Below, in pieces: positions 3,937-58,514 of a stretch of DNA of 64,000 nucleotides. A program made the position numbers and the translations under genes. Origin of the DNA: Candidatus Zipacnadum vermilionense (GTDB lineage Bacteria > Armatimonadota > Zipacnadia > Zipacnadales > Zipacnadaceae). The notes below the pieces were generated by a model. It was given only the letters and a program-made list of their open reading frames with translations. It searched no databases and was not told where the DNA came from. The stretch is taken from NCBI GenBank assembly GCA_029821755.1, contig JALGSV010000001.1:124001-188000 (forward strand). The letters run 5' to 3'. Within the stretch, counting starts at the first letter, position 1. The number at the start of each line of letters is the position of its first letter.

Positions 3937-6900
3937 CTAGTCCACCGGCTCGAAGGTGATATCGTCCAGGTACAGCGTGCCCGGCCCACCCCTGATGAAG
4001 CATTGCAGGAAGGTGGAGCTGATGCCCGGGGGCCAGGTGACGGCGGCGCCGGAGCCGGGGGGGCCGCAGGTGGTCTCGTAGGTCTGCCAGCCCTCGGTCG
4101 GGCCGTAGACGGCGAGGGCCCACTGCCAAGTCTTGTTGTTGGCCTGGAGGTGGTTGCCCTTGCCGTCGGGGGCGTAGCCGCCGAGGGTGACGGTCAGCTT
4201 GCTGTCGGCATACACCCGGACGCGGATGCGGTACACCTGTTGCGAGTCCACGGGCACGCGGTAGGGGGCGGCGATGTGGGCGCTGCCGTGCTGCTTGACG
4301 GTGAGCGCCAGGCAGTGCTTGCCCGGAGGGGCCGTGTCATCGGCGACGGGGTTGCCCCGGAACATGGAAACCTTGAGCTGTTCGTTGTCCGTGGCGGGGA
4401 AGGGGTCGAGCTTACCGGTCTCGAAGTCGCCGTTGGGGAAGAGGTTGGTCGAGACCACGGGGAGGGGCTTGTCGGACGTGACCGTCTGGCCCCGCGCGCT
4501 GACCTTGCCGCCGCTGCCCATGCTCAGGATTACCTCGTCGCCCCGGAGCTGGATCATCCCCGCCATTCCCTCAAAGTGGATATCCCCCTCGGCGTAAATG
4601 AAGGGCTCGCCGCTCAGGAAGACGTAGTCCACTCCCGCCTCGTGCGTCACCTTGACCCCCTGCCCGTCGGCCAGCGGCACGAAGGTCGCCGGCTTAGTGG
4701 TCTTCAAGCGGGGGTAGAGGACGACGTTGAATCCGCCGACGTGCGGCTCGGCGGCGATCAGGCCGATCTGGGTGGTTTCCATGGGCCCCCAGTGCCAGTC
4801 GGGGAACATGCCGGAGCCGCTCGTGCGGGTCTTGGGCTCGGTGGTCAGGGCCACGCCCTGCGGGGTGAGGAAGAAGACGTCCATGTCCACGTCCTCCTTG
4901 CCCACCACCAGCGCGGACTGCGGCCCGAGTTGGACCTCCTGCGCCGTCAGCCACAATCGCCAGGTGGCCGGCCCGTTGACCCGGAAAGCGTCGTTGAGGA
5001 GGAAGTAGGTCGGGGCCTCGGGGTCGGCGCCTTTGACGAAGGCGATGTGCCTGGTCCAGGCCTCCTTCACCCCCGCCACGTAGTCGAAACGCGGCCCGGT
5101 CACAAAATCCCGGACCTTCATGAGTCCGCGTCCCGCCTGAGGTGACTCCACCATGCTGTGGTCTTCCTGCGGGACGTAGCCGTAGTAGCCATACTCGTCG
5201 GCGAGAATGCGACCCTTGCCATACAGGACGATACTGCCCGAGTCGTCGTCGTAATGGGCATGGTTGGTGCCGTGGATCATGTGCAGGTAGGTCTCGCGGT
5301 CAGAGGGGTAGCTATCGCGCAGGACCAGGCCGGTCTCGGGGAAGAGCTCGCTGCCGTACTGGGGCGCCTGTTGGGGGAGGTCAGGGTCGGTCAGGAGCTT
5401 GCGATAGCCAGCGAAGGCGGGGAAGAAGCCGCCGATGCCGGCCGTGCCGTACTGCTTGTTCTGGTTGAACTGCCACTGCATCTCGGCGGAAAACTGGGGG
5501 TCCTGCTCGCGGAAGAGGTAGGCGAGCAGACCGTACTCCCCGCAGGGCTCGTTCATGTAGGTATTGCCCAGCGGCGGCCGGTGGCGGAAGCCACCCAGGC
5601 GAGAGTCGGGCGGGGTGTCAATCTTGGCGAACCACTGGATGACCTTCTTCACCTTGGGGTCGGTGTAGAGCCAGTCGTTGAATCCGGCGTTGTGGGCCAT
5701 GAGCAGGATGGCGAGAATCTGGTCGTAGGAGACCATGGCGTAGTGGGGCGCTTCCAGCCAGCCGCCGTTGTCGTCCGACCAGGTGTCGAGCTGGTCCTTG
5801 AGTCCGTCCATGCCCTCCTGGACCCACTGCTGGGCGTAGGGGTGGTCCGGGATGAAGGCGGCCAGCGAGGCCTGGTAGCCGTAGACCGAGGTGGTCATGT
5901 TGGGGTTGGCCGCATAGCCGCGGGCTGGAGACCAGTACTCCGGGCGGGAGGTGGTGTAGCCCAGGAAAGCGGCCAGGGCGCGCAGCCGGTCGCGCATCTC
6001 TGGCGTAGTCTGCGGGCTGTCATAGATGATGTCGGCCAGTCCCACCGCCGCTGATAGCCCGGAGTGGTTATGCGGTGCCGCGCCGAAAGGCAGGCCGTTC
6101 TGGTCTATCAGGTAGTCTGCTATATGCTGCAACATGTCCAGGGCCTTCTGCGCCAGCAGGTCGCCCAGGCGCGGATCTTCGGTCGCCAGGTAGGCCGGGA
6201 TGGCGTCGTCCATCCTGAACGCTGTCAGCGCGGTCGGGTTGTTGAGGAAGTACTCCGCTGTCTTCTGGTAAGGCTCGGGGTCGGCCACGCGGCCCTTGAA
6301 GGTCTCCACGTCCTTCTTCGTCAGCAGTAGCCGCGGATGCTCCAGCTGGCTTGGCCAGCGGGTGACATAGTCCTTGATCATGTCCAGCGGGAAGTGGCCG
6401 TACTTGATCAGGTAGCGATAGGGGAGACCCGAGACGTACTCCAGCTCGGGGTCCTGTAAGAAAGTCAGGCTGGCGTCGCGGTCCAGCGCCGTCAGCATCC
6501 ACTGGCGCCGGCCGTGCTTGAGCGGGAAGTCGATGTGCAGGCCGGTGTCGTCCTGGCTCACTACCAGCGGCGCGACCGCCTGCTGCTCGCGAGGGAGCGC
6601 CGGATCCACCCACACGCCTGCCTGACAGGCCGACACAGTGAGCAGATCCGGCTCGCGGGCGTTGAAGACGCTGAAGCAGTTGCCGCGCTGGTTACTGGCG
6701 TGCCATCGGAGCCATGGCTCGAATAGGTACAACTGTCCCTTGGTGACGGGGAGGACGGCGTTCTTGCCGTAGCTGCCGGTGGCAATAGAATCGGCGTAGC
6801 GGAAGAGCAGCTGCTCAGCGGCGAAGTTGTCGCTCAGCACCAGGCTGAAGGTAGCTTGCGTATCGACGGCGCACACCTCGTCTATCAACACCACCGGCTC

Positions 6901-7506
6901 TCCGGCGAAGAGCCGGTAGCGGGTCTCCCAGGTGCCCTGGTCGCCGAAGGTAAGCTTGCAGGTGGCCTCGGCCATGACCGGGCCGCGGGCGGTGATCTGT
7001 ATCTGCACTTGGGTGACCGGGGCCTCGGAGACCAGACGCGATCCGGCGACCCACTTACCCGAGTTGAGCATGATTCCCGCTAGTGGCCCGGTCCCGGCGG
7101 CAGGAGCCCTAGACAAGGCGATTCCGGTCTTGCCGTTGTAGAGGCGCACCATACCGTCGGCCTCTTCCACCTTCAGGTCGGTGGGGAAGCTGGCCTCGCC
7201 GGTGGCCGCGAAGGAGAACTCACGCGTGGCCAGCGGCGCCAGACTAGTCTGGAAGGCGAGCCGCGAGGCGCCTGGGGCGCCGGGGATGATCTGGTAGGTA
7301 ACAGGCTTACCGTCGGGGTCGAGGAGCGGACGCTGGGCCTGGGCCAGCTCGAGCTGCGCCGCGGTAAGCGGGAAGGTGACGTACTCATCGGTCCACTGGC
7401 GGCTCAGCTCTTCGCGCAGCGTGAAATCTGGGGCGGCCATAGCGGACAAGGTGAGGAGGGCCAGGGCGCAGATGGCAAGGCCTCGGGGCGTGCGGTTCTT
7501 CCACAT
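3937..7506 (-). CDS. secreted heparinase II/III-like polysaccharide lyase with C-terminal carbohydrate-binding module
   Basis: A protein of 1189 residues. An N-terminal signal peptide (LAICALALLTLSAMAA, cleavage near residue 25) is followed by a beta-rich domain, an alpha/alpha-barrel-like region (~400-700), then a heparinase II/III-type beta-sandwich segment around residue 755 (THNAHY-like GTNHAHYDDDSGSIVLYG). The final ~170 residues (NLFPNGDFE onward) resemble a CBM4/9-type jelly roll. The family cleaves uronate-containing polysaccharides outside the cytoplasm; this substrate is unknown. ATG 7506 has AAGGGAGAA upstream; a longer reading frame exists but lacks a signal peptide at its start. 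It converges on the GH42-like gene, so the two may serve one glycan. Confidence 0.75.
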   Translation of the reverse strand: MWKNRTPRGLAICALALLTLSAMAAPDFTLREELSRQWTDEYVTFPLTAAQLELAQAQRPLLDPDGKPVTYQIIPGAPGASRLAFQTSLAPLATREFSFAATGEASFPTDLKVEEADGMVRLYNGKTGIALSRAPAAGTGPLAGIMLNSGKWVAGSRLVSEAPVTQVQIQITARGPVMAEATCKLTFGDQGTWETRYRLFAGEPVVLIDEVCAVDTQATFSLVLSDNFAAEQLLFRYADSIATGSYGKNAVLPVTKGQLYLFEPWLRWHASNQRGNCFSVFNAREPDLLTVSACQAGVWVDPALPREQQAVAPLVVSQDDTGLHIDFPLKHGRRQWMLTALDRDASLTFLQDPELEYVSGLPYRYLIKYGHFPLDMIKDYVTRWPSQLEHPRLLLTKKDVETFKGRVADPEPYQKTAEYFLNNPTALTAFRMDDAIPAYLATEDPRLGDLLAQKALDMLQHIADYLIDQNGLPFGAAPHNHSGLSAAVGLADIIYDSPQTTPEMRDRLRALAAFLGYTTSRPEYWSPARGYAANPNMTTSVYGYQASLAAFIPDHPYAQQWVQEGMDGLKDQLDTWSDDNGGWLEAPHYAMVSYDQILAILLMAHNAGFNDWLYTDPKVKKVIQWFAKIDTPPDSRLGGFRHRPPLGNTYMNEPCGEYGLLAYLFREQDPQFSAEMQWQFNQNKQYGTAGIGGFFPAFAGYRKLLTDPDLPQQAPQYGSELFPETGLVLRDSYPSDRETYLHMIHGTNHAHYDDDSGSIVLYGKGRILADEYGYYGYVPQEDHSMVESPQAGRGLMKVRDFVTGPRFDYVAGVKEAWTRHIAFVKGADPEAPTYFLLNDAFRVNGPATWRLWLTAQEVQLGPQSALVVGKEDVDMDVFFLTPQGVALTTEPKTRTSGSGMFPDWHWGPMETTQIGLIAAEPHVGGFNVVLYPRLKTTKPATFVPLADGQGVKVTHEAGVDYVFLSGEPFIYAEGDIHFEGMAGMIQLRGDEVILSMGSGGKVSARGQTVTSDKPLPVVSTNLFPNGDFETGKLDPFPATDNEQLKVSMFRGNPVADDTAPPGKHCLALTVKQHGSAHIAAPYRVPVDSQQVYRIRVRVYADSKLTVTLGGYAPDGKGNHLQANNKTWQWALAVYGPTEGWQTYETTCGPPGSGAAVTWPPGISSTFLQCFIRGGPGTLYLDDITFEPVD

Positions 7507-7566
7507 GCGAGTTCTCCCTTGCGGAAAGTGTGCCGCGTGAATCCGGGCGGCTAAGGATGTCTGGCG

Positions 7567-7595
7567 ATTATACACGGCGGGCCACGGCAAGGGAA
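7567..7595 (-). promoter_or_regulatory. candidate promoter for the heparinase-like gene
   Basis: Read on the minus strand there is a perfect -10 hexamer TATAAT (7567-7572), about 60 bases before the start codon at 7506. The hexamer 17 bases upstream, TTCCCT, is a poor -35, so the assignment rests mainly on the -10. Confidence 0.4.
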
Positions 7596-7690
7596 GAGAC
7601 GACGGCCGGTTATGCCGTGCGGGCAGGAATACCGGCTTCCCATGTCGCATACCTTTCTGTTCCCCTGTCGAGGAGCGGAGGTGTCGACGA

Positions 7691-9907: not shown

Positions 9908-9950
9908 TGGCCCAGCGGAGCAGAAGCGAGAACAGCAGCGCTCTGTGACC

Positions 9951-10823
9951 ATGACCACCGAAGCACCGGCACAACCTGAGGGGAAGGGGGGGGGGATCGG
10001 CGACTTACTACGCTTCTGGCAAGTCGGGCTGCTAGTGGCGCTCCTCGCCGTTGGCTTCTGGTCAGTGCTGCAGGGGCTTTACCAGCGCTGGGTCTTGGAC
10101 GAGCCCTCCGGCGGGGGCCCGCTGGTGCCAGTAGCGGCAGGGTACCTGGTCTGGCTAATGCGCGACAAGCTGGCGGCCATCCCGGCGGCGGGCGACAACC
10201 GCGGCCTGCCGGTGATGCTGCTGGGCGTGCTGGTCTTCTGGGCCGGCAAATGGACCGATATCTTCCTCCCGCAGGGCCTGGCTTTGCTCGTGGTCGGCTG
10301 GGGGATGGTGCTGTGGCTGGGCGGGGCCAGATGGGCGCGCTTACTGGCCTTTCCCTTCGGCTTTCTCTTCTTCATGCTCCCCTTGCCACTTATCGGGCCG
10401 GTCACCGTGCCCGTGCAGGTGGTCCTGACCGCCATCGCCGGCGGCCTTACCCGAGCGATGGGCATTCCCCTGGAGATCCACGGCACGCAGATCGTGATGG
10501 CGGGTCAACTGATCACCGTCGATCCGGGCTGCGCCGGGATGCGGTTCCTACTGACGCTGGTAGCGGCCGCCTTCTTCGTGGCGTACCTGACCGATACCAC
10601 GACGGCCCGGCGAGCCCTCCTGGTGGCGCTGTCGGTGCCCCTGGCACTGGTGATCAATTTGATGCGGATTGAGCTGTCCGTGCTGATGGGCAAGGCCTTC
10701 GGTCTGGCGGCGGCGCGGGGCGTGTCACATTCCGGCACCGGTATCGTGGTGTTTGCTCTCGGCGTCATCTGTCTGGCCTACATGACGAGGTGGATATGCG
10801 CAACCAAAACTGGCGATGGCTAG
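9951..10823 (+). CDS. xrt: exosortase (PEP-CTERM-specific membrane transpeptidase)
   Basis: An integral membrane protein of about 290 residues with roughly eight hydrophobic segments. Counting from GTG 9945, the putative catalytic Cys is C196 in DPGCAGMR, the conserved Arg is R241 in NLMRIELSV, and the His is H262 in SHSGTGIV; these are the three invariant exosortase residues. The usual A-C-S-G-L-R around the cysteine is here G-C-A-G-M-R, a divergent subtype. Exosortases are thought to cleave at PEP-CTERM signals and pass proteins to the cell surface. ATG 9951 is preferred over GTG 9945, but neither has a strong ribosome site. It overlaps the EpsI gene. Likely substrates are the two PEP-CTERM proteins at 54.6-55.9 kb. 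Confidence 0.88.
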   Translation: MTTEAPAQPEGKGGGIGDLLRFWQVGLLVALLAVGFWSVLQGLYQRWVLDEPSGGGPLVPVAAGYLVWLMRDKLAAIPAAGDNRGLPVMLLGVLVFWAGKWTDIFLPQGLALLVVGWGMVLWLGGARWARLLAFPFGFLFFMLPLPLIGPVTVPVQVVLTAIAGGLTRAMGIPLEIHGTQIVMAGQLITVDPGCAGMRFLLTLVAAAFFVAYLTDTTTARRALLVALSVPLALVINLMRIELSVLMGKAFGLAAARGVSHSGTGIVVFALGVICLAYMTRWICATKTGDG

Positions 10824-11428
10824 TGGCGTTCTGCCTGCCGTTGGCGATGGCGACCAGCGGCCAGTACCTGTTCGCAGTCGGGGCAACCTCGGGCGGCCAA
10901 GTCGACACGGCGGTAGTGCCGCTGCGCCTAGGGGACTGGCAGGGAACCGAAATCCCCGTATCGGCCGAGGAACTGGCGCGACTGGACCGCGATGCGGAAT
11001 TGCGGCGGCTTTACACCAACAGCGCCGGCGAGACGCTGTCCATCGCCGTGGTGTACAGCAGCAAATGGAAGGGGTTGCACTCCGCGGAAAGCTGCCTGAC
11101 CGGCGGGGGATGGGACATCGTCAAGCAGTACAAGCTCGCGCTGGGGGCAGACGACCAGGAGAGCCCGGGCACGGTACTGCTAGCCCGCGACAAGCGGGGG
11201 CAGCAGATGGTCGAGTACTACATGTTCGTCAACCGCCAGGGAGTCACCGCCGACTGGATTGAGCAGTTCCTGATGTTAATCAAGAACCGGGGCCGGGGAG
11301 ACATGGCGTGTCACTTCATCCTCACCCAAAGAGTGAGAGAGGGCAGTACCCCGGAGGCCAGTGCGGAAGCGCTCCGTAGCTTCGCCCGCGAGATGCTGCC
11401 CTACGTGCAGCGGTCGCTGGGTGCCTAA
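10796..11428 (+). CDS. epsI: EpsI family exosortase-associated protein
   Basis: A protein of 210 residues with one N-terminal membrane anchor (about residues 7-29) and an exported domain of the EpsI/DUF3485 type. The family motif H-S-x-E-x-C appears as HSAESC (95-100), followed by G-G-G-W. EpsI-type proteins occur fused to or directly after exosortases in exopolysaccharide loci; their exact biochemical role is not settled. It overlaps the exosortase gene by 28 bases and has GAGG about five bases before ATG 10796, so it is co-translated with exosortase. A GTG six bases earlier is an alternative start. Confidence 0.88.
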   Translation: MRNQNWRWLVAFCLPLAMATSGQYLFAVGATSGGQVDTAVVPLRLGDWQGTEIPVSAEELARLDRDAELRRLYTNSAGETLSIAVVYSSKWKGLHSAESCLTGGGWDIVKQYKLALGADDQESPGTVLLARDKRGQQMVEYYMFVNRQGVTADWIEQFLMLIKNRGRGDMACHFILTQRVREGSTPEASAEALRSFAREMLPYVQRSLGA

Positions 11429-11726: not shown

Positions 11727-11813
11727 ACTGGCTGAACGAATCCCGGGGGGATCCTGAGGCGGATGCACCGGCAGATTCTGCCGGCACAATCGCCGGAAGA
11801 GAGGGTAGAGAGG

Positions 11814-13790
11814 ATGTCCGGGCCCGTTCTCGCACAAGATGCACCTGAACCAGGCAGCAACGGTAGCCGCCGCACCGGCGTGGGCAGGCGTTTGTACGAC
11901 CTGATCTTCTCTCTGCTTTCCCGACTGGAGAACAGGGTAGATAGGGAAGCGCACGACCTGCTCAAGGTTCTCTTTGACGTGGTCCTGATTGCGCTGGCGG
12001 CCCTGTGGAGTTGGACGGTGGTTCTGGGGCGGGAAGTCACCGCGAGCAACGCGGCGTGGTTCGTGCTGATGGACTTAGTGGCGCGCCTGCCCGTTTACCG
12101 GTTGCTGGGGATCTGGCGCTATTCGTGGAAACAAGTTTCGCCGCAGGATATACTCCAACTGGGCTTGAGCGCGGTCGCGGCCATGCCGCTCCTAGCGGCG
12201 GTGCTGTACGTTCCGGTGTACTTGGGCCGGCATTTTCTGCTTCCCGAACTAGGGCGGCCGTCGATCCTGCTGCTGACGGAGCCGGTATTCTACGTCCTGT
12301 TCCTGGGTAGCATAAGGCTGCTGGTGCGGATGTACCAGACAGCCCAGCAGGACGCGGACAGCCGCACCCCGGTCCTGGTGGTCGGCGCCGGGGCGACGGG
12401 GGCGGCCCTGGGCTACATGCTGGAGCAGCCCGGCCACGAGTACACGGTGGCGGGGTATCTGGACGACCAGCCGCGCAGCCGGGGCCGGCGGATCCGGGGC
12501 AAGCCGGTGCTGGGGTCGGTCGCCGAGGCCCGCGAGTGGGCGGCGCGAACGGGAGCGCAGGCCATCATCATCGCCACGCCCAGCCTCGGGCCGGAGCGGC
12601 TGCGCGAACTACTGGTGGTCCTGGAATCGACCGGGTTGCCCATCCGGACTGTGCCGCCGATGGAGCGGGTCCTAACCCGACAGGCGAGCATCGACGACCT
12701 GCGGGACTTGCGGATGGAGGACCTGCTGCCCCGGGAGACGGTGCATCTGGACCGGGACGCCATCTGCGGGTACCTCCGCGGCAAGACCGTGCTGGTTACC
12801 GGCGGGGGCGGATCAATCGGGAGACAGTTGTGCAAGCAGGTCATCGAGGCCGGAGCGAGCCGAGTCTTGGTCCTGGGACGCGGCGAGAACAGCGTTTTTG
12901 AGGCAGTCCTGGAGCTGCAGGAACTGGCATCCGGACGCGAGATCGTCCCGATCATCTGCTGCATTCGGGACCGGGAGGCGCTCGAGGGAGTCTTTGCGAC
13001 GCACGCGCCTCAGGTCGTGTTCCACGCGGCCGCGCATAAACATGTGCCGCTGATGGAGACGTACCCGGCCGAGGCGATCAAGAACAACGTGGTGGGGACG
13101 CTGAACCTGGTGGAATTGGCGGTGCAGTATGGGGCCGAGCGCCTCGTGCTGGTCTCGACCGACAAAGCCGTGAATCCCGTGAGTATCATGGGGGCGAGCA
13201 AGCGGGTGGCGGAGCAGATCGTGCGCGCCTACGCCGAGGAGACCGGGGCTAACATGGTGAGCGTGCGATTTGGCAACGTGCTGGGGAGCCGCGGGAGCGT
13301 CGTGCCGATCATGACCCGGCAGATCCGACGGCGGCAGCAGGTGACGATCACCGATCCGGAGATGGTGCGCTACTTCATGACCATCCCGGAGGCGGTGCAG
13401 TTGATCCTCCAGGCGGGGGCTACCGACGGGAATGGGGAAGCCTACATCCTGAAGATGGGGCATCCTGTGCGGATCATGGACTTGGCCTGCGACCTGATCC
13501 GGCTGGCGGGGCTGACGCCGAATGTCGATGTGCCACTCAAGATCATCGGCTGCCGGCCTGGAGAGAAGCTCAAGGAAGAACTGTTCACCGGCGCGGAGAA
13601 CGAGTGGGTCCAGTCAGGCGAGCATTTCTACGTCGTACCGGGCCGCTGCGTGAGTCTGGAGCACCTGCTGTTGCAGGTCGAGCAACTCCGCCAGGCGGCG
13701 GACAGGGAGGACCGCGAGACAATAGTACGGCTTCTACAGGACATGATTCCGGACTACATTCCCTCGGGGGCAGCAGTGCCGGCGAGATGA
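11814..13790 (+). CDS. CapD/FlaA1-type membrane-bound NDP-sugar 4,6-dehydratase
   Basis: A protein of 658 residues. Four hydrophobic helices (about 40-170) are followed by a CoA-binding-like Rossmann domain (VLVVGAGATG) and an extended SDR domain with TGGGGSIG near residue 330. The active-site segment reads S448-T-D-K, then M459-G-A-S-K463: Met replaces the usual Tyr, which is normal for this dehydratase family (WbpM, PglF, FlaA1). The family converts UDP-GlcNAc-type sugars to 4-keto-6-deoxy forms, the first step to bacillosamine or fucosamine-like sugars. I prefer ATG 11814, preceded by GAGAGGG, over ATG 11763. It opens the polysaccharide locus. Confidence 0.88.
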   Translation: MSGPVLAQDAPEPGSNGSRRTGVGRRLYDLIFSLLSRLENRVDREAHDLLKVLFDVVLIALAALWSWTVVLGREVTASNAAWFVLMDLVARLPVYRLLGIWRYSWKQVSPQDILQLGLSAVAAMPLLAAVLYVPVYLGRHFLLPELGRPSILLLTEPVFYVLFLGSIRLLVRMYQTAQQDADSRTPVLVVGAGATGAALGYMLEQPGHEYTVAGYLDDQPRSRGRRIRGKPVLGSVAEAREWAARTGAQAIIIATPSLGPERLRELLVVLESTGLPIRTVPPMERVLTRQASIDDLRDLRMEDLLPRETVHLDRDAICGYLRGKTVLVTGGGGSIGRQLCKQVIEAGASRVLVLGRGENSVFEAVLELQELASGREIVPIICCIRDREALEGVFATHAPQVVFHAAAHKHVPLMETYPAEAIKNNVVGTLNLVELAVQYGAERLVLVSTDKAVNPVSIMGASKRVAEQIVRAYAEETGANMVSVRFGNVLGSRGSVVPIMTRQIRRRQQVTITDPEMVRYFMTIPEAVQLILQAGATDGNGEAYILKMGHPVRIMDLACDLIRLAGLTPNVDVPLKIIGCRPGEKLKEELFTGAENEWVQSGEHFYVVPGRCVSLEHLLLQVEQLRQAADREDRETIVRLLQDMIPDYIPSGAAVPAR

Positions 13791-13846: not shown

Positions 13847-15493
13847 ATGCAGACGACCACGCGGACGTGGCTCGGCCTACTGTTCGGCATCCTCGCTATG
13901 CTGACAGTCAGCCTAGCTGCAGCAGAAACTGTCGACGACTACATCCTGGGCCCGGGTGACGAGATTGCTGTCACGGTCTTCGAGCACCCGGAGTTGAGCC
14001 TGACTCGGGTGGTTATCCGTCCGGACGGGCTGATTACCCATCCTTTCCTGGGTGCGATAAAGGTAGCTGGGCAGACGCCCACGCAATTGGCTGGGCGCCT
14101 TACCCAGGAGCTGAAGAAAGAACTCCGCGCGCCGCTGGTCACCGTGAGCGTGCTGCAGATGGCCGGAGGCATGGTCTACGTAAGAGGCGAGGTGACCGCC
14201 CCCGGGGCCTTCCCCACCCTAACTCCCCTGACCGTGGCCCGCGCTATCAACCTCGCGCTGGGCCTGACCCCCAAAGCAAGCCGCCGCGAAGCCTACATCA
14301 TCGGGCCCCAGGGCGATACCCGCAAGGTGGACCTGACGGTGGCCATGGGCGAGCGCGCCGCCGAGTTCATGCTCGTCCCCTCTGAGACCCTCGTTGTCCC
14401 TCCCGTAGAAGTGAAAGCCATTACCATCGTCGGCGAGGTCGGTAAGCCGGGCAAGTACGGATTGACCGCCCCGGACGATACGCTGCTCGACGCGCTACTG
14501 GGGTGTGGCTGGGTCACCCCGAGCGCCGACCGTCAGTACGCGTTGCTGGTGCGCGATGGGGACGAGGCGCAGCGGGTGACGATCGCTCCCCTCCTCCAGT
14601 ACCAACCGGGAGCGGTGGGCCCACACCTGGAATCGGGCGACATGCTGGTCTTCCCCAGAGCGATCAACTACGTAACGGTCTGGGGGGCCGTGGTCAAGCC
14701 AGGCAAGATCATGCTGGGCCTCGACGAGGAGAAGGTGAGCGATCTGATGGTGGCGGCTGGAGGCTTCACGGATTCCGCGAACAGGGAGACCGCGAGTCTA
14801 GTACGAGCTAACGGCGAATCGGTGACGGTTGACCTGAAGCAAGCGTTGGAGACCCCGCTGGCCGAGGCTAACCTGGCAGTGCAAGCGGGCGACACGCTGC
14901 TAGTCGCGAGCCGGCGCAACGAGGTCACCCTGGTGGGAGCAGTGGGCAACCCGGGATCGTACCCCTTTACAGATGACGAGAAGTTGCTGGACCTGCTCAC
15001 CCAAGGCGGCGGGATAGCGCGTAACGGGGACCTGGACAACGTGGCTCTGCTGCGTGCTGGCGAGCCGCCCGTGACGGTCAGCGTGAGGGGACTGTTCGAG
15101 AGCGGGGACATGACCAATAACCTGGCCCTTAGGGTCGGGGACACGGTGGTTGTCCCCGAGGTGAAGCGAGAGCTGTACGTCTTCGGGTGGGTGTTGACCC
15201 CGGGCAAGTTCGAGTTCGAGGAAGGCGATCGGCTGATAGATATCATGGCGCGCGTAGGCTATGATAAGGCTTCCGCCGCCCCCTGGAAGACAGCGTTAAT
15301 CCGCCGCAAGGGAGTCGATGTTGACGTCTACGTGGTGGACATGGAGAAGATCATCCGCGGGCAGGCCCCCGACAAGAACTACCTGATCGAGAACGGGGAT
15401 GTGATCATCGTGCCCAAGCGCACGGGCATGAACTGGCGGGAGTGGGTGCAGCAGCTGTTCTTCGTTGTCGGCGCAGTGCGGATCTTTCAGTAG
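13847..15493 (+). CDS. Wza/GumB-like polysaccharide export protein with multiple SLBB domains
   Basis: A protein of 548 residues. A signal peptide (about 1-26) precedes the Poly_export domain (YILGPGDEIAVTVFEHPELS, about 32-105). It is followed by about five SLBB repeats, each recognisable by V-x-G-x-V-x-x-P-G (VRGEVTAPGAF, IVGEVGKPGKY, VWGAVVKPGKI, LVGAVGNPGSY, VFGWVLTPGKF). There is no lipobox cysteine. The C terminus ends in a hydrophobic stretch (QQLFFVVGAVRIF) that could form the membrane-spanning helix known from Wza. Such proteins form the outer envelope channel for exported polysaccharide. It lies directly before the Wzz/BY-kinase gene, the standard partner. Confidence 0.88.
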   Translation: MQTTTRTWLGLLFGILAMLTVSLAAAETVDDYILGPGDEIAVTVFEHPELSLTRVVIRPDGLITHPFLGAIKVAGQTPTQLAGRLTQELKKELRAPLVTVSVLQMAGGMVYVRGEVTAPGAFPTLTPLTVARAINLALGLTPKASRREAYIIGPQGDTRKVDLTVAMGERAAEFMLVPSETLVVPPVEVKAITIVGEVGKPGKYGLTAPDDTLLDALLGCGWVTPSADRQYALLVRDGDEAQRVTIAPLLQYQPGAVGPHLESGDMLVFPRAINYVTVWGAVVKPGKIMLGLDEEKVSDLMVAAGGFTDSANRETASLVRANGESVTVDLKQALETPLAEANLAVQAGDTLLVASRRNEVTLVGAVGNPGSYPFTDDEKLLDLLTQGGGIARNGDLDNVALLRAGEPPVTVSVRGLFESGDMTNNLALRVGDTVVVPEVKRELYVFGWVLTPGKFEFEEGDRLIDIMARVGYDKASAAPWKTALIRRKGVDVDVYVVDMEKIIRGQAPDKNYLIENGDVIIVPKRTGMNWREWVQQLFFVVGAVRIFQ

Positions 15494-15535: not shown

Positions 15536-17665
15536 GTGCTCGAGAAACGCGAACAAGAGCTTGATATACGCGACTACCTGACCATTCTGGGTAGGCGCCA
15601 GTGGCTCATCGTTCTTACGGTGGTCACTGTCGTCCTTGCGACCATCTCCTACACGCTGACCCAGCCCGATCTGTTCTCGGCCGAGTCCCGTGTGCTGCTG
15701 CGCTCCCCCTACATGCCCTACGCGGGCGAGACCGGCGGGATGATGTCTCTGGGGGTTGGCAACCTAAGCCAGACCTACGACATCGACACCGAGATTGAGC
15801 GCATAAAGAACCCGGAGTTGATCAAGGAGACGCGCGAGCGGTTGCCGGGACGGTTGCGGAATTCGCCGCTCACCCGGTTGGTGGTGCGCCAGATCGGCAA
15901 GACGGCGATTATCGGCATCACCATCGAATCGCCCAGCAATCGTTTCGCCGCCCAGATGTCGCAGGAGCTGGCGGCGGCGTACATCGAGCACACCCGTCGC
16001 ATGCGCCAAATGGCCACCGAGCAAGCGCTCAAGTACGTAACGGAACAAGCACAGCAAGCCAAGGGAGATCTGGACAAGGCCGAGCAGGAACTCAGCGCCT
16101 TCAAGCGCGCGGAGGGGATTGTGGATATTGCCTCGGCCAGCGGACGCGTGGCCACGCGGTACGAGTCCATGACGAACGCAATAGAGAAGGGGCGGAGCGA
16201 GATCCGCATTCTCAACACGCAACTGGTGGCCGTGGAGGCGCAGAGGAAGGCGATTGACCCCCGCCGGACCGCGGAGTTGACGGCTGCCTCGGACTCCAGC
16301 ATCGGGCAGATCAAGCAGCAGTTACAGCAACTGATGACGCAGCGCCTGACGCTTCTGAAGGACTACACCGAGACGAGCCGGACGGTGCGGGGGATGGACG
16401 CTCAAATCGCCAGCATGCGAGAGCAACTCCATCAAGCGTTGAGCGAGGTCTCCTACGCGGAGCTGGAGCGGGTCAACCCCGAGCTGGTGGAACTGCGCAG
16501 GCGCCGAGCCGAGCTGGAGACGGCGCGCCTTACGGCCCAGGCTAGTGTGGCCGCCGCCTCCTCCCTCCTGGCCCAGACGCAAGGGGAAATGCAGGCCTTG
16601 CCTGATAAACAGGTACGGTACGCGCAGGTCGAGCGGCAATTGAGGGTCGCCGAGAACGCCTACAATGACCTGCTCGCCCAAGCGCAGGTTCTGCGCATCC
16701 AGCAGGCCGCCGCGGTTGCCAGCGCGTTCGTCCTCACTCGGGCGGACGTGCCCAGGGAGCGGATCTCCCCCCAGCCGCAGAAGAACATGATCACCGGCAC
16801 GCTGGTGGGTCTGTTCCTGGGACTGGTCGTCGCCCTGATCGCCGACCGCCTCGACGACACCTTCCGCAATCCCAAGGAACTGGAGCGCCTGCTGAAGCTC
16901 CCGGTTCTGGGCTTGGTGCGGATGAAGGAAGAGGGGACGCCGATCATCCTGACCGACGAGGATGAGCGTTCGCCGTACGCGGAGGCCTTCCGCACCCTGC
17001 GCGCCAACATGCGCTTCAGCTCCGTGAACGGGCCGGCCCGCACGCTGCTCGTGACCAGTGCCGCGGCAGGTGAGGGCAAATCCACCTGCGTGGCCAACCT
17101 CGGCATCGAGTCGGCGCGCGCCGGGCAGCGGGTGATCATGGTGGACACGGACATGCGCCGGCCGGCCCTGCACACGTACTTCGACTTGGAGAGCGACCGA
17201 GGTGTCTCCAACGTGCTGGTGGGGGACCTGTCGCCGGAGGAGGCCCTTGTGGATACCTCGGTGCCCGGCCTGCGTCTCCTGCCGGCCGGCGCCCAGCCTC
17301 CGAATCCGGTGGTGTTGCTCGAGTCCGAGGCCATGCAGAACCTGATAGGGCGAGTCAGTGCCATGGCCGACTTGGTCATCTTCGATTCCCCCCCGGTGCT
17401 GATCGCCGCGGACTCCCAGTTGCTGGCCAGCTTTCTCGACACCACGTTTATCGTCATTGAGACGCGGAGTACTCGGCGGGAGATGGCGCAGCGAGCCCTG
17501 GAACTCCTGCGCCGGGCCAACGCTCAAGTGATAGGCATTGCCATCAACAAGGCGCGGCAGCGGGAGCAGGGGCACTACTACTACTATTACTACAACTACT
17601 ATTACTACAATGGGCACAGCAACAAGGGGAAGAACGGGCACAGCGGGGCGAACGGCAGTAAATGA
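15536..17665 (+). CDS. Wzc-like polysaccharide co-polymerase with BY-kinase domain
   Basis: A protein of 709 residues. The Wzz domain starts with a membrane helix (about 25-45), continues through a long coiled-coil (about 160-390) and ends in a second helix (about 417-437). The cytoplasmic BY-kinase domain has Walker A SAAAGEGKST (about 505-515), Walker A' VDTDMRRP and Walker B VIFDSPPVL. The tail carries a dense tyrosine cluster (ten Tyr in about 12 residues) followed by a Gly/Lys/Asn-rich end; this is the autophosphorylation region. Together with the SLBB export protein it would control chain length and export. Start is GTG 15536 with GGAGG ten bases upstream. It overlaps the next gene by ATGA. 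Confidence 0.9.
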   Translation: MLEKREQELDIRDYLTILGRRQWLIVLTVVTVVLATISYTLTQPDLFSAESRVLLRSPYMPYAGETGGMMSLGVGNLSQTYDIDTEIERIKNPELIKETRERLPGRLRNSPLTRLVVRQIGKTAIIGITIESPSNRFAAQMSQELAAAYIEHTRRMRQMATEQALKYVTEQAQQAKGDLDKAEQELSAFKRAEGIVDIASASGRVATRYESMTNAIEKGRSEIRILNTQLVAVEAQRKAIDPRRTAELTAASDSSIGQIKQQLQQLMTQRLTLLKDYTETSRTVRGMDAQIASMREQLHQALSEVSYAELERVNPELVELRRRRAELETARLTAQASVAAASSLLAQTQGEMQALPDKQVRYAQVERQLRVAENAYNDLLAQAQVLRIQQAAAVASAFVLTRADVPRERISPQPQKNMITGTLVGLFLGLVVALIADRLDDTFRNPKELERLLKLPVLGLVRMKEEGTPIILTDEDERSPYAEAFRTLRANMRFSSVNGPARTLLVTSAAAGEGKSTCVANLGIESARAGQRVIMVDTDMRRPALHTYFDLESDRGVSNVLVGDLSPEEALVDTSVPGLRLLPAGAQPPNPVVLLESEAMQNLIGRVSAMADLVIFDSPPVLIAADSQLLASFLDTTFIVIETRSTRREMAQRALELLRRANAQVIGIAINKARQREQGHYYYYYYNYYYYNGHSNKGKNGHSGANGSK

Positions 17666-18540
17666 GCGCAGAAACAGTCGTGAACGAGAATCGGGCTGAG
17701 GGGCAATACGCGGACGGCAAGCCGCGCGAAGAATGGTGCTCGCGCGACGCCCATGGTCTGATCTACCAGTTGCGCGAGATCTGGAAGTTCCGCGAGCTGA
17801 TGTGGACCCTGTCACTGCGCTCGCTCAAATCCCGCTACCGCCAGACCCTCCTCGGCGCCAGTTGGGCCATCATCCAGCCGCTGACCATGACGGTGGTCTT
17901 CACGCTGGTGTTTGGGAAGTTCGCCAAGGTGGACACCGGCGGGGCGGCCTATCCGGTGTTCGCCTACGCCGCCATGCTGCCTTGGCAACTATTCGCCAGC
18001 ATCGTCGGCCGCGGCACCGGCAGCGTGCTGGAAAACGGAGCCATTGTCAAGAAGATCTACCTCCCGCGCGAGGTCTGCCCGATGGCCTCTATACTTGTGG
18101 CGCTGGTGGACTTCGCCGTGGCCTCGCTGGCGCTGGTGATCTTTATGATCATCTACCGGGTAGCCCCCACGGTCCTGATTGTCTATCTGCCGGTGCTCCT
18201 GCTGGTCGAAGTTGTGATGGCGTTAGGGATTATCTTCTTCCTGTCCGCCACTGCCGTGTTCTACCGCGACGTCGGCTTCGGCCTGCCGCTGGTGCTGCAA
18301 CTGGGGATGTTCATCTCGCCGGTGGCGTATTCGGTCGTCACCGTGCCGGAGAGGTACTTGGGGTGGTACATGCTCAACCCCATGGCCTCCATCGTGGATG
18401 GCTTCCGGCGCATCATCGTGGACCAGCGCATGCCGCAGTGGGAATACGTGGCCTACTCGGCGGGCGTAGCGCTCCTCTTCCTGGGCCTGGGCTACTGGTA
18501 CTTCAAACGAGCGGAGGGTAGATTCGCGGACGTACTGTAG
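17662..18540 (+). CDS. wzm: ABC-2 type polysaccharide exporter permease (Wzm/TagG/RfbA-like)
   Basis: A protein of 292 residues with a cytoplasmic N-terminal ~60 residues and six membrane helices. The sequence LRSLKSRYRQTLLGASWAII is the typical entry of the Wzm/KpsM/TagG family. It forms the inner-membrane channel that flips a lipid-linked glycan, driven by the ATPase encoded at 18623. It starts within the stop of the BY-kinase gene (ATGA overlap), which couples its translation to the Wzc-like protein. This is notable because Wzc proteins usually accompany Wzx/Wzy rather than an ABC exporter. Confidence 0.9.
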   Translation: MSAETVVNENRAEGQYADGKPREEWCSRDAHGLIYQLREIWKFRELMWTLSLRSLKSRYRQTLLGASWAIIQPLTMTVVFTLVFGKFAKVDTGGAAYPVFAYAAMLPWQLFASIVGRGTGSVLENGAIVKKIYLPREVCPMASILVALVDFAVASLALVIFMIIYRVAPTVLIVYLPVLLLVEVVMALGIIFFLSATAVFYRDVGFGLPLVLQLGMFISPVAYSVVTVPERYLGWYMLNPMASIVDGFRRIIVDQRMPQWEYVAYSAGVALLFLGLGYWYFKRAEGRFADVL

Positions 18541-18546
18541 CGGTAG

Positions 18547-18593
18547 CGCAGGCTTCCCGGCCTGCGTCCGTAGCACAGGCTTTCTAGCCTGTG
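18547..18593. repeat. tandem pair of short palindromic repeats between wzm and wzt
   Basis: Two hairpins in a row: CGCAGGC (18547-18553) with GCCTGCG (18560-18566), and CACAGGCT (18574-18581) with AGCCTGTG (18586-18593). Both follow GTAGC and read as variants of one unit (GTAGC-CAGGCTT-loop-CCTG). This looks like an interspersed repeat family distinct from that at 3721. It fills the only real gap between the ABC exporter genes. Confidence 0.7.
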
Positions 18594-18622
18594 TCGCGGC
18601 GGTCCCGGCTGTGCACGGCAAC

Positions 18623-19875
<1,253 letters not shown>

Positions 19876-19879
<4 letters not shown>

Positions 19880-54535: not shown

Positions 54536-54579
54536 AGCTGCGCATTGGACCGCATATCGTTAGTTGAGGGGGGATGACG

Positions 54580-55167: not shown

Positions 55168-55230
55168 ACGCGAGAACGGCCCGCTCGCCCGAAGTTTTCG
55201 CCGCAAAGCAGGTTATTCCGTCACAGATGT

Positions 55231-55238
55231 GGTATACT
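55231..55238 (+). promoter_or_regulatory. extended -10 promoter of the second PEP-CTERM gene
   Basis: TATACT (55233-55238) is preceded by TGG, forming an extended -10. The region where a -35 would lie (about 55211-55218) is AT-rich but poor. It is about 80 bases before ATG 55316. Confidence 0.45.
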
Positions 55239-55315
55239 ATTCGTGTGGGGAGCGATTGGGATCACCTTCTGGGTTCCGCGTAGCTCTAGTTCCTCACTCT
55301 GGGGGGGTATCCGTT

Positions 55316-55900
55316 ATGTTTCTCAGCAGATCCTCAACCGCCGTTAGAGGTCTCCTGGTAGTAGCCCTCGTCTGTCTGACCATCGGCTACGCTGCTGCCG
55401 ATTCCCTGGTCTACCAGGGCGAAGCTCCCGTGGGATCTGGGTATCCTAACGAGGGTATTTCCTCCTACACCGGGTCGAACGCCAGTGGCACTCTCTGGGA
55501 CTATGTGTACGACATTAGCGGCTGGACTACCGGCCCTTCTTCGGTGCAGCAGTGGGGGATAGAGGTGCTTACACCCATCGCGTCGGGTAAGATATGGTCA
55601 CCTGCAGAATGGACTGCCACGTATTACCCCGTGGTGCCCAGCGACATGGGCGGATTCGACACTCTCTGGGGGAAGATGGCCGTCATCTGGGTTGCCGGTA
55701 TTAATGCGCAAGTGGCCGAGGGATTCCATTTCCAGAGCGGGCTCCCTCCGGTGAAGCTGGCCTACGACTCTGACAGGTCAGCCTTCCTCGGCGATGAGTG
55801 GTCGGCCTCCATACCGGAACCCTCGACACTTCTCCTGGCGAGTGCGTTGCTGCTCAGCGCCGGAATCGCGAGAAGGCGGCGAAAACATGCGAAGAGCTGA
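55316..55900 (+). CDS. PEP-CTERM sorting-signal protein, paralogue
   Basis: A protein of 194 residues with a signal peptide (about 1-28, ending YAAAD), an exported domain and the C-terminal P-E-P (167-169), hydrophobic helix ([16 protein letters not shown]) and RRRRK tail. The mature start [12 protein letters not shown] and the block [12 protein letters not shown] align with the preceding paralogue. ATG 55316 is used because the upstream open frame has no signal peptide in register and crosses the promoter. Its 3' end overlaps the prepilin-like gene by 14 bases. Confidence 0.87.
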
Positions 55901-56597
55901 CGAGTACCATCCGCGGGCTAGGGGGGGGAGGCAAGGGCAACGGGGCTTTACACTAATCGAGCTGCTGGTCGTCATTGCGATCATCGCCATTCTGGCCGCG
56001 ATCCTCTTCCCCGTTTTTGCCCGGGCTCGAGCCAAGGCCCAACAGACCAAGTGCCTGTCCAATCTGAAGCAATTGGGCATGGCCATGCAGATGTACGCTA
56101 CGGACTATGACGGACTTCTGCCCTACCGGGGGCCGTCTCGCTGGAACTGGACCTACGGCTGGTACCATGGTTCCCCTTACGACGCGCACATCTTGCTCAT
56201 GGTCACCGCAATCCATCCCTACGTCAAGAACTACCAAGTCTGGTTCTGCTCGGCCGATCCCGCCCAGGCCGACGCCGTGGCCGCTGGTGGGTGGGGCAGC
56301 GACGCGGACGCGCAGGCCGGCAGGGTTAGCTATTGCCTCTGTACACAGTGGGACACCTATGGGGGCAGCATGGATCCCGCGTGCCCCAGCGACGTCGATC
56401 CCATGGACGTGTCGTTCGGTTCGCCCTCAGAGCAGAGCCTGCTCTGCGACAATGGGCTGTTCTGCGACACCGGCGAGAAGGTAAACGGCGCGCACTTCAA
56501 CGGGTCGAACTTCGCCTTCCTGGACGGACACGTTAAGTATATAGCGATAGCGGGGTGGGGTGAGCTCCACCCACCCATGGTGGCCATCACCCCGTAG
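55887..56597 (+). CDS. type IV prepilin-like (pseudopilin) protein with N-methylation motif
   Basis: A protein of 236 residues. The cleavage motif is G20-F21-T-L-I-E25, followed by a 20-residue hydrophobic helix. After that [11 protein letters not shown] and [24 protein letters not shown] match the prepilin-like proteins that are abundant in Armatimonadota and Planctomycetota (DUF1559-like layout). The rest has six or more Cys and ends in [12 protein letters not shown], the H-x-G-x-x family block (usual form D-G-H-V). It may form a pseudopilus or be a surface protein processed by a prepilin peptidase. It overlaps the PEP-CTERM gene, an unusual pairing. Confidence 0.88.
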
Positions 56598-56682: not shown

Positions 56683-56717
56683 TGGCAACCGGTAGACTCA
56701 GAGCTTGAGAGGTGCCC

Positions 56718-58514
56718 ATGTCCTTGTCCACCCACTTCTCCCTTCGGCGAGGCTCGATGCTCAATTCCGAGTCCTTAGTCAAACGCGGCACCCTAGCGGC
56801 CGGCTTGCTGATCATTGCGTTGATTGTGCTGGCGACGAAGTTCACCTCACTCGACGTCAATGGCGCTGACTACGCGCAGTTGGCTCGGAACCTGGCCACC
56901 GGGCATGGTTACACCACTTCGGTGATTACGCCCCTGAGCCTGGCCCTGGTGCCCCGGATCGAGAATCACCCCGAGATGACGCGGCCGCCGGCGTACGTCA
57001 CGGTACTGGCCCTCGGCATGCTCATCGGCGGCGCGACAGACAAGACAGTGGCCGTGATATCGATAATCTTCTTGCTGCTAACCGCGCTGGCGCTCTACTT
57101 CATCGCCCTGCGCGTCTTTGGCCCGCGGGTGGCCCTGTGGGCCTTGCTGCTGTACGCCACGTCTGTGCCGCTGCTTCGGCAGGCGATCTCCGGTCTGGAC
57201 ACGACCTTCCTGTCCTTCCTGGTCACATTGCTTTTCGGGGCGCTCATATGGAACTACCGGGCTGCGCGGGGCGAGGAGGACGAGGAGGAAGAGCCCTCAA
57301 GACTCGGCTTGTGCGTGCCCATTGCGGTCGGGGTACTGGTGGGCCTGTGCTACCTCACCTCGTACGACACGCTGGTGCTCTTGCCGGTGGCGCTGTACTT
57401 CCTGTGGCGGGCGGACCGCCCCCAGGCCAAGCGCAACCTGATAGCCGTGCTCGTTGTCTTCCTAATCTTGGTCCTGCCCTGGATCATTCGGTGTTCGGTG
57501 ATCGCGGGCGGGCCCTTCATCTCGCTGCACAGCTACGAACTGGCCATGTTCACCGACCAGTACCCGGGCCAGACGCTCTTCCGGCGCTTCGACGATGTCC
57601 CGAGCAAGCCGTGGCTCATGCTGATAGCCCACTGGCCTGACATGGTCAAGAAGATCGGCCAGGGCATCGGCGGGCTGTACACCGACGCCGCGCAGTTTGC
57701 GGGTCCGTACCTGATGCCGTTCTTCATCGTGGGGCTGCTACTAGCCGCGCCTCGCCGGCGCTCGGTGCTGCTGCACGGCTGTCTGGGGCTGGCGATCCTC
57801 CTGCAGCTCGCCGTCCTATGCTACTACCAGCCGCTGGCGAGAATCCTGCTGCCCTACGCGCCCATGGTGGCGATGCTGGCAGTGTTCTGGTTCACGACCC
57901 TGGTGGAGGAATGGAACGAGGCGCTGCTTGGTTTGCGGCGGCATTACCAGGGCCTAGGCCTGTCGCTGGACGCGGTGCTGTACGCCGGCCTCGTCGTGGC
58001 GATGGCCATACCGCTAGTGCTGTTCCTGTTTCTGAGCGGCGAGTCGCGCGCGCACCCGGCGATTGACACCATGAGGCAACTTGGGTCCATGCCCTATCCC
58101 TACCTGGCGACTGACCTGCCCTGGCTAGCGGCCTGGTACGGCGACAAGCAGGCCCTATCTCTGCCCTACCGCGAGCGGGACTGGACGGCCATGGAGCAGG
58201 CTAAGCTCACCCCTCCCGCGATCTACCTCTCGCCCGCCCTGTTGGAGGCACCTCCCACGGAGAGGATGGAGTCCTGGCAGCGCTTGCTCCTGTCGGGCCA
58301 GGACTTCCACGGAATGAAACGAATACCGAACTGGCGGCAGGCCGGGGTGCTCCTGGCCAAGACCGCGCCGCCTTCGCCGGCCGTGCGGGGAGCCAGGGGG
58401 GCGACGGGGAGCGGAACGCCCGCGACCGGGGGCAGGCCGCCGGCTGCCGGTAGCGCAAGTGGAGAAAGAGCGCCAGCCGGCGGAGCACCCACGGGCTCGG
58501 CGGCCCCGCCGTAG
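56718..58514 (+). CDS. GT39-like polytopic membrane glycosyltransferase
   Basis: A protein of 598 residues with about 11 membrane helices. After the first helix the loop LDVNGADYAQLARNLATGHGYTTS and MTRPPAYVTVLALGML follow the ArnT/PMT-like GT-C pattern (D-x-x-x-Y, R-P-P-x-Y). The last ~55 residues are a low-complexity Ala/Gly/Pro/Ser tail. Such enzymes use lipid-linked sugars on the outer membrane face and can glycosylate proteins or lipids. ATG 56718 has GAGAGG five bases upstream. It is transcribed before the deoxysugar genes but separated by about 255 bases. Confidence 0.75.
   Translation: MSLSTHFSLRRGSMLNSESLVKRGTLAAGLLIIALIVLATKFTSLDVNGADYAQLARNLATGHGYTTSVITPLSLALVPRIENHPEMTRPPAYVTVLALGMLIGGATDKTVAVISIIFLLLTALALYFIALRVFGPRVALWALLLYATSVPLLRQAISGLDTTFLSFLVTLLFGALIWNYRAARGEEDEEEEPSRLGLCVPIAVGVLVGLCYLTSYDTLVLLPVALYFLWRADRPQAKRNLIAVLVVFLILVLPWIIRCSVIAGGPFISLHSYELAMFTDQYPGQTLFRRFDDVPSKPWLMLIAHWPDMVKKIGQGIGGLYTDAAQFAGPYLMPFFIVGLLLAAPRRRSVLLHGCLGLAILLQLAVLCYYQPLARILLPYAPMVAMLAVFWFTTLVEEWNEALLGLRRHYQGLGLSLDAVLYAGLVVAMAIPLVLFLFLSGESRAHPAIDTMRQLGSMPYPYLATDLPWLAAWYGDKQALSLPYRERDWTAMEQAKLTPPAIYLSPALLEAPPTERMESWQRLLLSGQDFHGMKRIPNWRQAGVLLAKTAPPSPAVRGARGATGSGTPATGGRPPAAGSASGERAPAGGAPTGSAAPP

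What the first reader, a model, noticed from the sequence alone, without database searches (positions are those of the whole stretch)
9951..11428. Divergent exosortase subtype with EpsI, far from its substrates
The active-site block is G-C-A-G-M-R rather than the usual A-C-S-G-L-R, while Cys 196, Arg 241 and His 262 are kept. Its substrates (two PEP-CTERM proteins) lie 43 kb away across the polysaccharide locus. This may be an unassigned exosortase subtype.
Basis: partly seen in the sequence, partly recalled or inferred. Interest (0 to 1): 0.5.

Follow-up and report, generated by a model that had tools for sequence, protein, structure and literature searches.

The report
Second exosortase with its own substrates
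A little-studied bacterium carries, beside its everyday enzyme for placing proteins on the cell surface, a second, unassigned version of that enzyme that probably handles its own small set of surface proteins made along with a sugar coat; the odd active-site spelling that drew attention is a minor variation.

Summary
In detail: 9951-10823 encodes an intact exosortase (TIGR02602 125.6 bits, cut-off 105.55) overlapping an EpsI gene (10790-11428) at the head of a polysaccharide locus. The block D-P-G-C-A-G-M-R is there, with all published invariants (C-x-G, N-x-x-R, H-x3-G). It misses every named-subtype cut-off, as did all 11 exosortases of its order that I scanned. Ala after Cys is private among the 71 phylum exosortases aligned, yet occurs in a bona fide XrtV, so it defines no subtype. 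A small lineage does (tree support 0.986): Asp at Cys-3 plus Asp/Glu/Gln at Arg+2 in 5 of 5 members and 0 of 134 others. The genome has a second, order-wide exosortase type and about eight PEP-CTERM proteins, so the window pair are not its only candidates. In relatives the lineage sits beside a PMT_2 glycosyltransferase and PEP-CTERM proteins lacking Gly at PEP+9 (0 of 10, window pair included; 66 of 78 in 12 single-exosortase genomes, one of which, G037, breaks the pattern). The window holds the same parts at the two ends of its polysaccharide locus. Best reading: a dedicated second exosortase system, a new variant of a known kind.

The parts
9951..10823 (+). exosortase (EpsH family), unassigned subtype; C194, R239, H260 from ATG 9951 (GTG start possible at 9945)
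   Evidence: AlphaFold model pLDDT 91.7
10521..10544 (+). active-site block D-P-G-C-A-G-M-R; Asp at Cys-3 is a lineage mark, Ala after Cys is private
10656..10673 (+). N-L-M-R-I-E; Glu at Arg+2 is a lineage mark (D/E/Q in 5 of 5 members, in none of 134 others)
10728..10742 (+). H-S-G-T-G motif
10790..11428 (+). EpsI (DUF3485), overlaps the exosortase gene by 34 nt
   Evidence: TIGR02914 68.2 bits, PF11984 76.9 bits
11562..11590 (+). promoter-like site TTGATA-17-TATAAT before the polysaccharide genes (consensus match only)
11763..13790 (+). CapD/PseB-like nucleotide-sugar dehydratase heading the polysaccharide locus (below the PseB cut-off)
   Evidence: TIGR03589 181.4 bits, cut-off 407.75
13847..15493 (+). 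Wza-type export protein, over cut-off for 'XrtA/PEP-CTERM system exopolysaccharide export protein'
   Evidence: TIGR03027 218.4 bits (cut-off 180)
15536..17665 (+). chain-length determinant / tyrosine autokinase
   Evidence: TIGR01007 164 bits (108.05)
17662..19879 (+). polysaccharide ABC transporter: Wzm-like permease (17662-18540) and Wzt-like ATPase (18611-19879)
   Evidence: PF01061, PF00005, PF14524
54574..55167 (+). PEP-CTERM protein 1, tail SPEPGTLALASMLLLGAGVWRRRRRRR (no Gly at PEP+7 or +9)
55307..55900 (+). PEP-CTERM protein 2 (ORF opens at GTG 55229; ATG 55307), tail [29 protein letters not shown]
55794..56597 (+). DUF1559/H-X9-DG pseudopilin; neighbour of this PEP-CTERM family in five relatives
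56712..58514 (+). PMT_2 polytopic glycosyltransferase; its closest kin in the tree lie directly upstream of the lineage's exosortases in relatives
   Evidence: PF13231 45.6 bits; GT tree support 1.0

Best explanation
It is a functional second exosortase of a small lineage seen in the order of Candidatus Zipacnadia relatives (Armatimonadota), outside the named subtypes, dedicated to a few PEP-CTERM surface proteins made together with one polysaccharide. Inferred working: the two PEP-CTERM proteins of the window (and perhaps others with similar tails, such as one on contig C22) cross the inner membrane by signal peptide and stay anchored by their C-terminal helix. The exosortase cuts at the Pro-Glu-Pro motif with Cys194 (helped by Arg239 and His260) and passes the protein to an unknown acceptor. 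EpsI assists in an unknown way, and the product leaves with the polysaccharide that the Wza/Wzc/Wzm-Wzt locus exports. The PMT_2 glycosyltransferase beside the substrates probably attaches sugar to them or to the acceptor. The order-wide exosortase type on contig C113 handles the canonical tails. Shown here: family membership, lineage, signature, gene neighbourhoods, tail difference. Inferred: activity, pairing, glycosylation.
For: Intact ORF with all six published invariants. Lineage: window plus four order relatives, support 0.986; Asp at Cys-3 with D/E/Q at Arg+2 in 5 of 5 members and 0 of the other 134 in the tree, also in a sixth, partial member. In relatives the open frame of a PMT_2 gene abuts that of the exosortase upstream (0-4 nt) in 3 loci (L052, L064, L071), and PEP-CTERM genes lie within about 4 kb in 3 genomes (L190, L192, L194). 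With tails removed, window PEP protein 2 matches one of G038's neighbours over 132 residues (E 3e-7 in a seven-sequence comparison); the matches to G025 are weaker (E 2e-4 to 0.03) and mostly N-terminal. The window's PMT_2 groups with the lineage's upstream PMT_2 genes, support 1.0. In Ch33 the lineage exosortase lies beside a polysaccharide locus in which 12 window frames from Wza onward recur in the same order. Gly at PEP+9: 0 of 10 linked tails (8 TIGR02595 matches plus 2 of G025 found by pattern), 66 of 78 tails of 12 single-exosortase genomes, 23 of 33 unlinked tails of the five lineage genomes (G025 pair). Within the window pair's protein family, 4 of 4 copies in genomes without the lineage exosortase keep Gly+9, and 7 of 7 in G000, G038 and G001 lack it. 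AlphaFold model confident (pLDDT 91.7, pTM 0.85).
Against: The PEP+9 position was picked after seeing the tails; the linked tails come from four related genomes, and in the window the link rests on kin, not distance. Single-exosortase genome G037 breaks the pattern: only 7 of its 15 tails have Gly+9, the rest being a W-x-L-L-A-C-T type; without it the other 11 genomes give 59 of 63. Genus mate G001 has the same locus and the variant tail, but no exosortase at the locus head (7.1 kb readable) and none found in its 79%-complete assembly, although an EpsI fragment is there. G030 has two lineage exosortases, no common-type one, one detected PEP-CTERM protein and no homologue of window protein 2. 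The PEP-CTERM/pseudopilin pair also occurs in four genomes without this lineage. Ch33's linked PEP-CTERM proteins show no ectodomain match. Branch order inside the lineage is weak (0.38-0.79). I know of no experiment on any member.
Confidence: 0.57

Rival explanations
1. A redundant second exosortase: both enzymes of the genome process all PEP-CTERM proteins, and the tail differences are drift.
For: PEP-CTERM proteins are found in 39 of 41 order genomes, many of which show only the common exosortase. Homologues of the window pair exist in genomes without this lineage. G037, with one detected exosortase, has tails with and without Gly+9.
Against: Linked tails lack Gly+9 in 4 of 4 genomes, while homologues of the same proteins in genomes without the lineage keep it. 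Two distinct active-site surroundings are each conserved.
Confidence: 0.24
2. A decaying copy: Ala after Cys and loss of the adjacent glycosyltransferase mark an enzyme on its way out.
For: Ala is private among the 71 phylum exosortases aligned; the genus mate lacks the gene at this place.
Against: Full-length ORF, all invariants kept, GC and GC3 as its neighbours (0.659, 0.828), EpsI partner intact, confident fold, Ala seen in an XrtV above cut-off.
Confidence: 0.08
3. The enzyme acts on other, unrecognised substrates and its place in the polysaccharide locus is what matters; the PEP-CTERM pair belongs with the pseudopilin.
For: The PEP-CTERM/DUF1559 gene pair recurs without this exosortase in G001, G033, G035, G037 and G040. 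G030 has two lineage enzymes and one recognised PEP-CTERM protein.
Against: Homologues of the window pair lie next to this lineage in G038, and weaker ones in G025.
Confidence: 0.11

Closest known systems
Exosortase A (XrtA, TIGR03109) / EpsH with EpsI and PEP-CTERM substrates
   Same: Fold family, all invariant residues, EpsI partner, place in an exopolysaccharide locus with a TIGR03027-type exporter, PEP-CTERM proteins in the genome.
   Different: 140.1 bits against a cut-off of 208; Asp at Cys-3 and Glu at Arg+2; variant tails; PMT_2 partner gene.
Exosortase V (XrtV, NF035943)
   Same: One member (L160, Novosphingobium umbonatum, 339.4 bits, cut-off 313) has the same C-A-G-M wording.
   Different: Window protein scores 103.7 bits; that XrtV lacks the lineage marks. 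Only one XrtV was seen.
Second exosortases of same-order genomes (L052/L103, L064/L104, L071/L144, L049, fragment L082/L122)
   Same: Same lineage, same two marks, separate EpsI; PMT_2 gene and PEP-CTERM neighbours in the loci where these are readable.
   Different: They keep CSG; their modules are compact.
The order's common exosortase type (e.g. G000:C113)
   Same: EpsI partner, PMT_2 gene upstream, no named subtype (186.6 bits to XrtA, cut-off 208).
   Different: PCSGLKS block, no Asp/Glu marks; in 11 of 12 genomes where it was the only exosortase found, tails are mostly canonical.

Membership tests
Exosortase (EpsH) family | TIGR02602 / PF09721 over curated cut-off | tested here: met
   125.6 bits (105.55) and 167.4 bits (25.7)
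Exosortase (EpsH) family | invariant Cys-Xaa-Gly, Asn-Xaa-Xaa-Arg, His-Xaa3-Gly (PMC1569441, passages) | tested here: met
   CAG, NLMR, HSGTG
Exosortase (EpsH) family | PEP-CTERM proteins in the same genome | tested here: met
   six TIGR02595 matches over cut-off
Exosortase (EpsH) family | cleavage/transpeptidation of PEP-CTERM protein | not testable with these tools
   no experiment
XrtA (TIGR03109) | score over 208 bits | tested here: not met
   140.1 bits
XrtV (NF035943) | score over 313 bits | tested here: not met
   103.7 bits
XrtW (NF038142) | score over 425 bits | tested here: not met
   127.9 bits
XrtB, XrtC, XrtD, XrtJ, XrtK, XrtM, XrtN, XrtO, XrtQ, XrtT, XrtZ, CrtA, CrtB, CrtC, ArtC | score over each curated cut-off | tested here: not met
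   all below cut-off; named subtypes not listed there gave no match at E<=1
EpsI (TIGR02914) | score over 42.8 bits, next to an exosortase | tested here: met
   68.2 bits, overlaps the exosortase gene
Second-exosortase lineage of this order (defined here) | clade placement | tested here: met
   support 0.986, 139-sequence FastTree
Second-exosortase lineage of this order (defined here) | Asp at Cys-3 and D/E/Q at Arg+2 | tested here: met
   5 of 5 members, 0 of 134 others
Second-exosortase lineage of this order (defined here) | PMT_2 gene directly upstream (3 of 3 members with the place readable and abutting) | tested here: not met
   in the window the kin gene lies 45 kb away at 56712-58514; in G025 a PMT_2 fragment lies 2.5 kb upstream at the contig end

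The most novel reading that the evidence does not exclude
A distinct exosortase subtype of the Zipacnadia relatives with an acidic pair beside the catalytic Cys and Arg. It reads its own PEP-CTERM flavour (no Gly at PEP+9) and works with a PMT_2 glycosyltransferase, so that sorting and sugar attachment of the substrate are one coupled process, tied to one polysaccharide locus.
Probability: 0.28. Interest if true: 0.6.

Novelty: new variant of a known kind. Interest (0 to 1): 0.4.

Why it matters
How exosortases choose among C-terminal signals, what they attach, and what EpsI does are open questions as far as I know. A lineage with its own two active-site marks, its own tail flavour and a recurrent glycosyltransferase partner gives a natural two-enzyme, two-signal comparison inside one genome and points to a sugar-transfer step. 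The PMT_2-exosortase neighbourhood recurs in 40 of 70 phylum loci seen, and two searches of the held library found no paper joining the terms.

Tried and rejected
Active-site wording as the basis of a subtype: rejected, because the lineage keeps CSG and an XrtV has CAGM. Recent import by composition: GC of the pair is that of its neighbours. Viral or plasmid carriage: no relative confirmed in viral contigs with profile A1, no match in plasmids. Solved relatives: none by sequence, none by fold at E<=0.001. Coordinates of the model were not in the script box, so active-site distances were not measured. The first genome-contig scan with the single protein found nothing; the profile scan kept 80 of 98 loci. 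The nine matches first left out were weak ones of G037 and G026, and they made the result less clean; confidence was lowered from 0.60 to 0.57 and the novel case from 0.30 to 0.28 for that reason. The Pfam scan of upstream genes inside the phylum undercounts PMT_2 because many loci had only 1.5 kb of flank. Haft 2012 (PMC3256604) is not held, so nothing is cited from it.

Full report
OBSERVATION. ORFs 9945..10823 and 10790..11428 are intact and overlap by 34 nt. The first is an exosortase: PF09721 167.4 bits (cut-off 25.7), TIGR02602 125.6 (105.55). The second is EpsI: TIGR02914 68.2 (42.8), PF11984 76.9 (26.1). [quoted passage not shown] In archaeosortase ArtA, Cys173, Arg214 and Arg253 are critical for activity (PMC9263693, a review, passages). 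An AlphaFold model on 64 sequences is confident (mean pLDDT 91.7, pTM 0.85); no solved relative was found by sequence (E up to 0.1) or fold (E up to 0.001).

NAMED SUBTYPES. No named exosortase model reaches its cut-off: XrtA 140.1 (208), XrtW 127.9 (425), XrtD 115 (400), XrtV 103.7 (313), the rest lower. This is ordinary in its order: of 11 order exosortases scanned (window, L103, L104, L144, the fragment L122, L001, L132, L030, L049, L063, L065) none shows a match over a named-subtype cut-off (the listing limits were E 1, 1e-8 and 1e-18, so a weak hit to a low-cut-off model such as XrtK could be hidden).

THE ACTIVE-SITE WORDING. A search of 61 genomes gave 79 exosortase matches in 51 genomes. 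I aligned 71 of them (7 were not fetched, 1 weak one was not picked up): the window is the only one with Ala after Cys, and 70 of 70 others read CSG. Over 140 non-redundant frames including other phyla the triplet is CSG in 135, CAG in 2, CNG in 1, and two weak L068 frames lack the Cys. The other CAG is L160 (Novosphingobium umbonatum), C-A-G-M-N-S, an XrtV above cut-off (339.4 against 313). So the wording occurs in a named subtype to which the window protein does not belong, and is absent from its own kin. It is best read as a private, conservative substitution; an assembly error cannot be excluded without reads.

PLACEMENT. NCBI lists Candidatus Zipacnadia as a class of Armatimonadota. In a FastTree of 139 sequences the window falls with L052 (Ch33/G021), L049 (G025), L064 (G038) and L071 (G030), support 0.986; inner branches are weak (0.38-0.79). 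Asp at Cys-3 together with Asp/Glu/Gln at Arg+2 is found in 5 of 5 members and 0 of the other 134; the partial L082 also has it. A search of 291 phylum genomes with the window protein (E up to 1e-35, matches in 18) gave no closer relative than Ch33.

TWO EXOSORTASES, SEVERAL PEP-CTERM PROTEINS. The genome (4.39 Mb, 115 contigs, 95% complete) has a second exosortase with its own EpsI on contig C113 (P-C-S-G-L-K-S), a type seen across the order. TIGR02595 gives six matches over cut-off; my tail pattern gives eight, on C17 (3), C22 (3), C15 and C1. PEP-CTERM matches occur in 39 of 41 order genomes and, in the part of the list shown, are spread over many contigs, in line with the report that over 65% are single-gene operons (PMC1569441, passages). 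The 43 kb gap is therefore no oddity in itself.

THE SPLIT MODULE. In relatives the lineage exosortase and EpsI sit in a compact module. The open frame of a PMT_2 glycosyltransferase abuts that of the exosortase upstream (0-4 nt) in L052, L064 and L071; in G025 PEP-CTERM genes stand there and a PMT_2 fragment lies 2.5 kb off at the contig end. PEP-CTERM genes lie beside it in Ch33 (L190 10914-11753, 12053-13189 and one on the other strand at G021:C135:79900-79968), in G038 (three, L192 11381-13588) and in G025 (two, L194 17061-18980). In Ch33 the module adjoins a polysaccharide locus in which 12 window frames, from Wza to 32392, recur in the same order; at least four window genes (19783, 20667, 21937, 28442) have no counterpart in that list. 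In the window the exosortase and EpsI stand at one end of the locus, and the PEP-CTERM pair (54574-55900) and a PMT_2 gene (56712-58514) at the other. That PMT_2 protein groups with those upstream of the lineage exosortases, support 1.0, away from the C113 one. With tails removed, window PEP protein 2 matches G038's 12941 protein over 132 residues at 32% (E 3e-7) and the two window proteins match each other (33% over 162, E 2e-8); matches to G025's pair are weaker (E 2e-4 to 0.03) and mostly cover the N-terminal third with the signal peptide; Ch33's proteins give nothing above noise. These E-values are for comparisons with seven sequences or fewer.

THE TAILS. Against the reading, G037 has Gly+9 in only 7 of 15 tails; most of the others are a W-x-L-L-A-C-T type like that beside the second exosortases of G040 and G035 (L063, L067), so an undetected second enzyme in this 87%-complete genome is possible but unproven. 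The other 11 genomes give 59 of 63. Fisher P of 0 of 10 against 66 of 78 is 1e-7, and 1e-4 against the unlinked tails, but tails are not independent and the position was chosen after looking; four genomes is the honest sample. Within the window pair's own protein family, copies in G033, G035, G037 and G040 (no lineage exosortase found) keep Gly+9, 4 of 4; those in G000 (2), G038 (4) and G001 (1) lack it, 7 of 7.

AGAINST. Genus mate G001 (79% complete) has the same locus (CapD-like 1001 bits, Wza 58% identity) with 7.1 kb readable upstream and no exosortase there, and none was found in the assembly, yet it carries the variant tail, the pseudopilin, an EpsI fragment and two PMT_2 copies at 55-56% identity. 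So the exosortase-EpsI pair was gained here or lost there. G030 has two lineage exosortases, one detected PEP-CTERM protein and no homologue of window protein 2. The PEP-CTERM/pseudopilin pair exists without this lineage in G033, G035, G037 and G040.

PMT_2 AND EXOSORTASES. With a profile built from five of these glycosyltransferases, a same-strand hit lies within 1 kb upstream of the exosortase in 40 of 70 phylum loci and 1 of 67 loci of the genome contigs set, that one being itself titled Armatimonadetes. Pfam on the upstream gene of 60 outside loci does not show PMT_2 among the 25 families listed (so at most 2 of 60), and finds it in 13 of 60 phylum loci, many cut short. The profile was trained inside the phylum, which favours the phylum. 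Searches of the held library for exosortase + glycosyltransferase + Armatimonad, PEP-CTERM + mannosyltransferase + exosortase, and PEP-CTERM + Armatimonad gave 0, 0 and 1 paper (a LuxI/LuxR survey, listing only).

VERDICT. An ordinary exosortase by family and invariant residues, of a small unnamed lineage, most likely a dedicated system for variant PEP-CTERM proteins of one polysaccharide locus.

Noticed in passing
L001-L083 (phylum exosortase loci): A PMT_2-type glycosyltransferase lies within 1 kb upstream of 40 of 70 phylum exosortases (an undercount, short flanks), with a small zinc-ribbon protein between them in some; 1 of 67 in the other set.
   Followed up: partly
window 55229-56597; L227-L231: A PEP-CTERM protein and a DUF1559/H-X9-DG pseudopilin form a recurring gene pair in five relatives (G001, G033, G035, G037, G040).
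   Followed up: partly
L062, L063, L065, L067, L070; G037 tails: Other second exosortases of the order also sit beside PEP-CTERM proteins with their own tail flavours (SPELGTWALLACTG, VPEPGTWVLLLASGAIGG, TPEPVTMALLALGLP); G037 has several W-x-L-L-A-C-T tails but only one exosortase found.
   Followed up: no
window 44782-46473 and 48624-49823: Two long polysaccharide-locus proteins (563 and 399 aa) without a Pfam match at 1e-5; the second is conserved in the genus mate (L333 5323-6555).
   Followed up: no
window 3937-7650; L186 7317-11000: A 1237-aa protein, by eye lyase-like but not scanned, has a close paralogue upstream of the window (1121 bits).
   Followed up: no
G001:C339:141-3733: The genus mate carries two tandem copies of the window's PMT_2 gene (55-56% identity), each match reported with one stop inside.
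   Followed up: no
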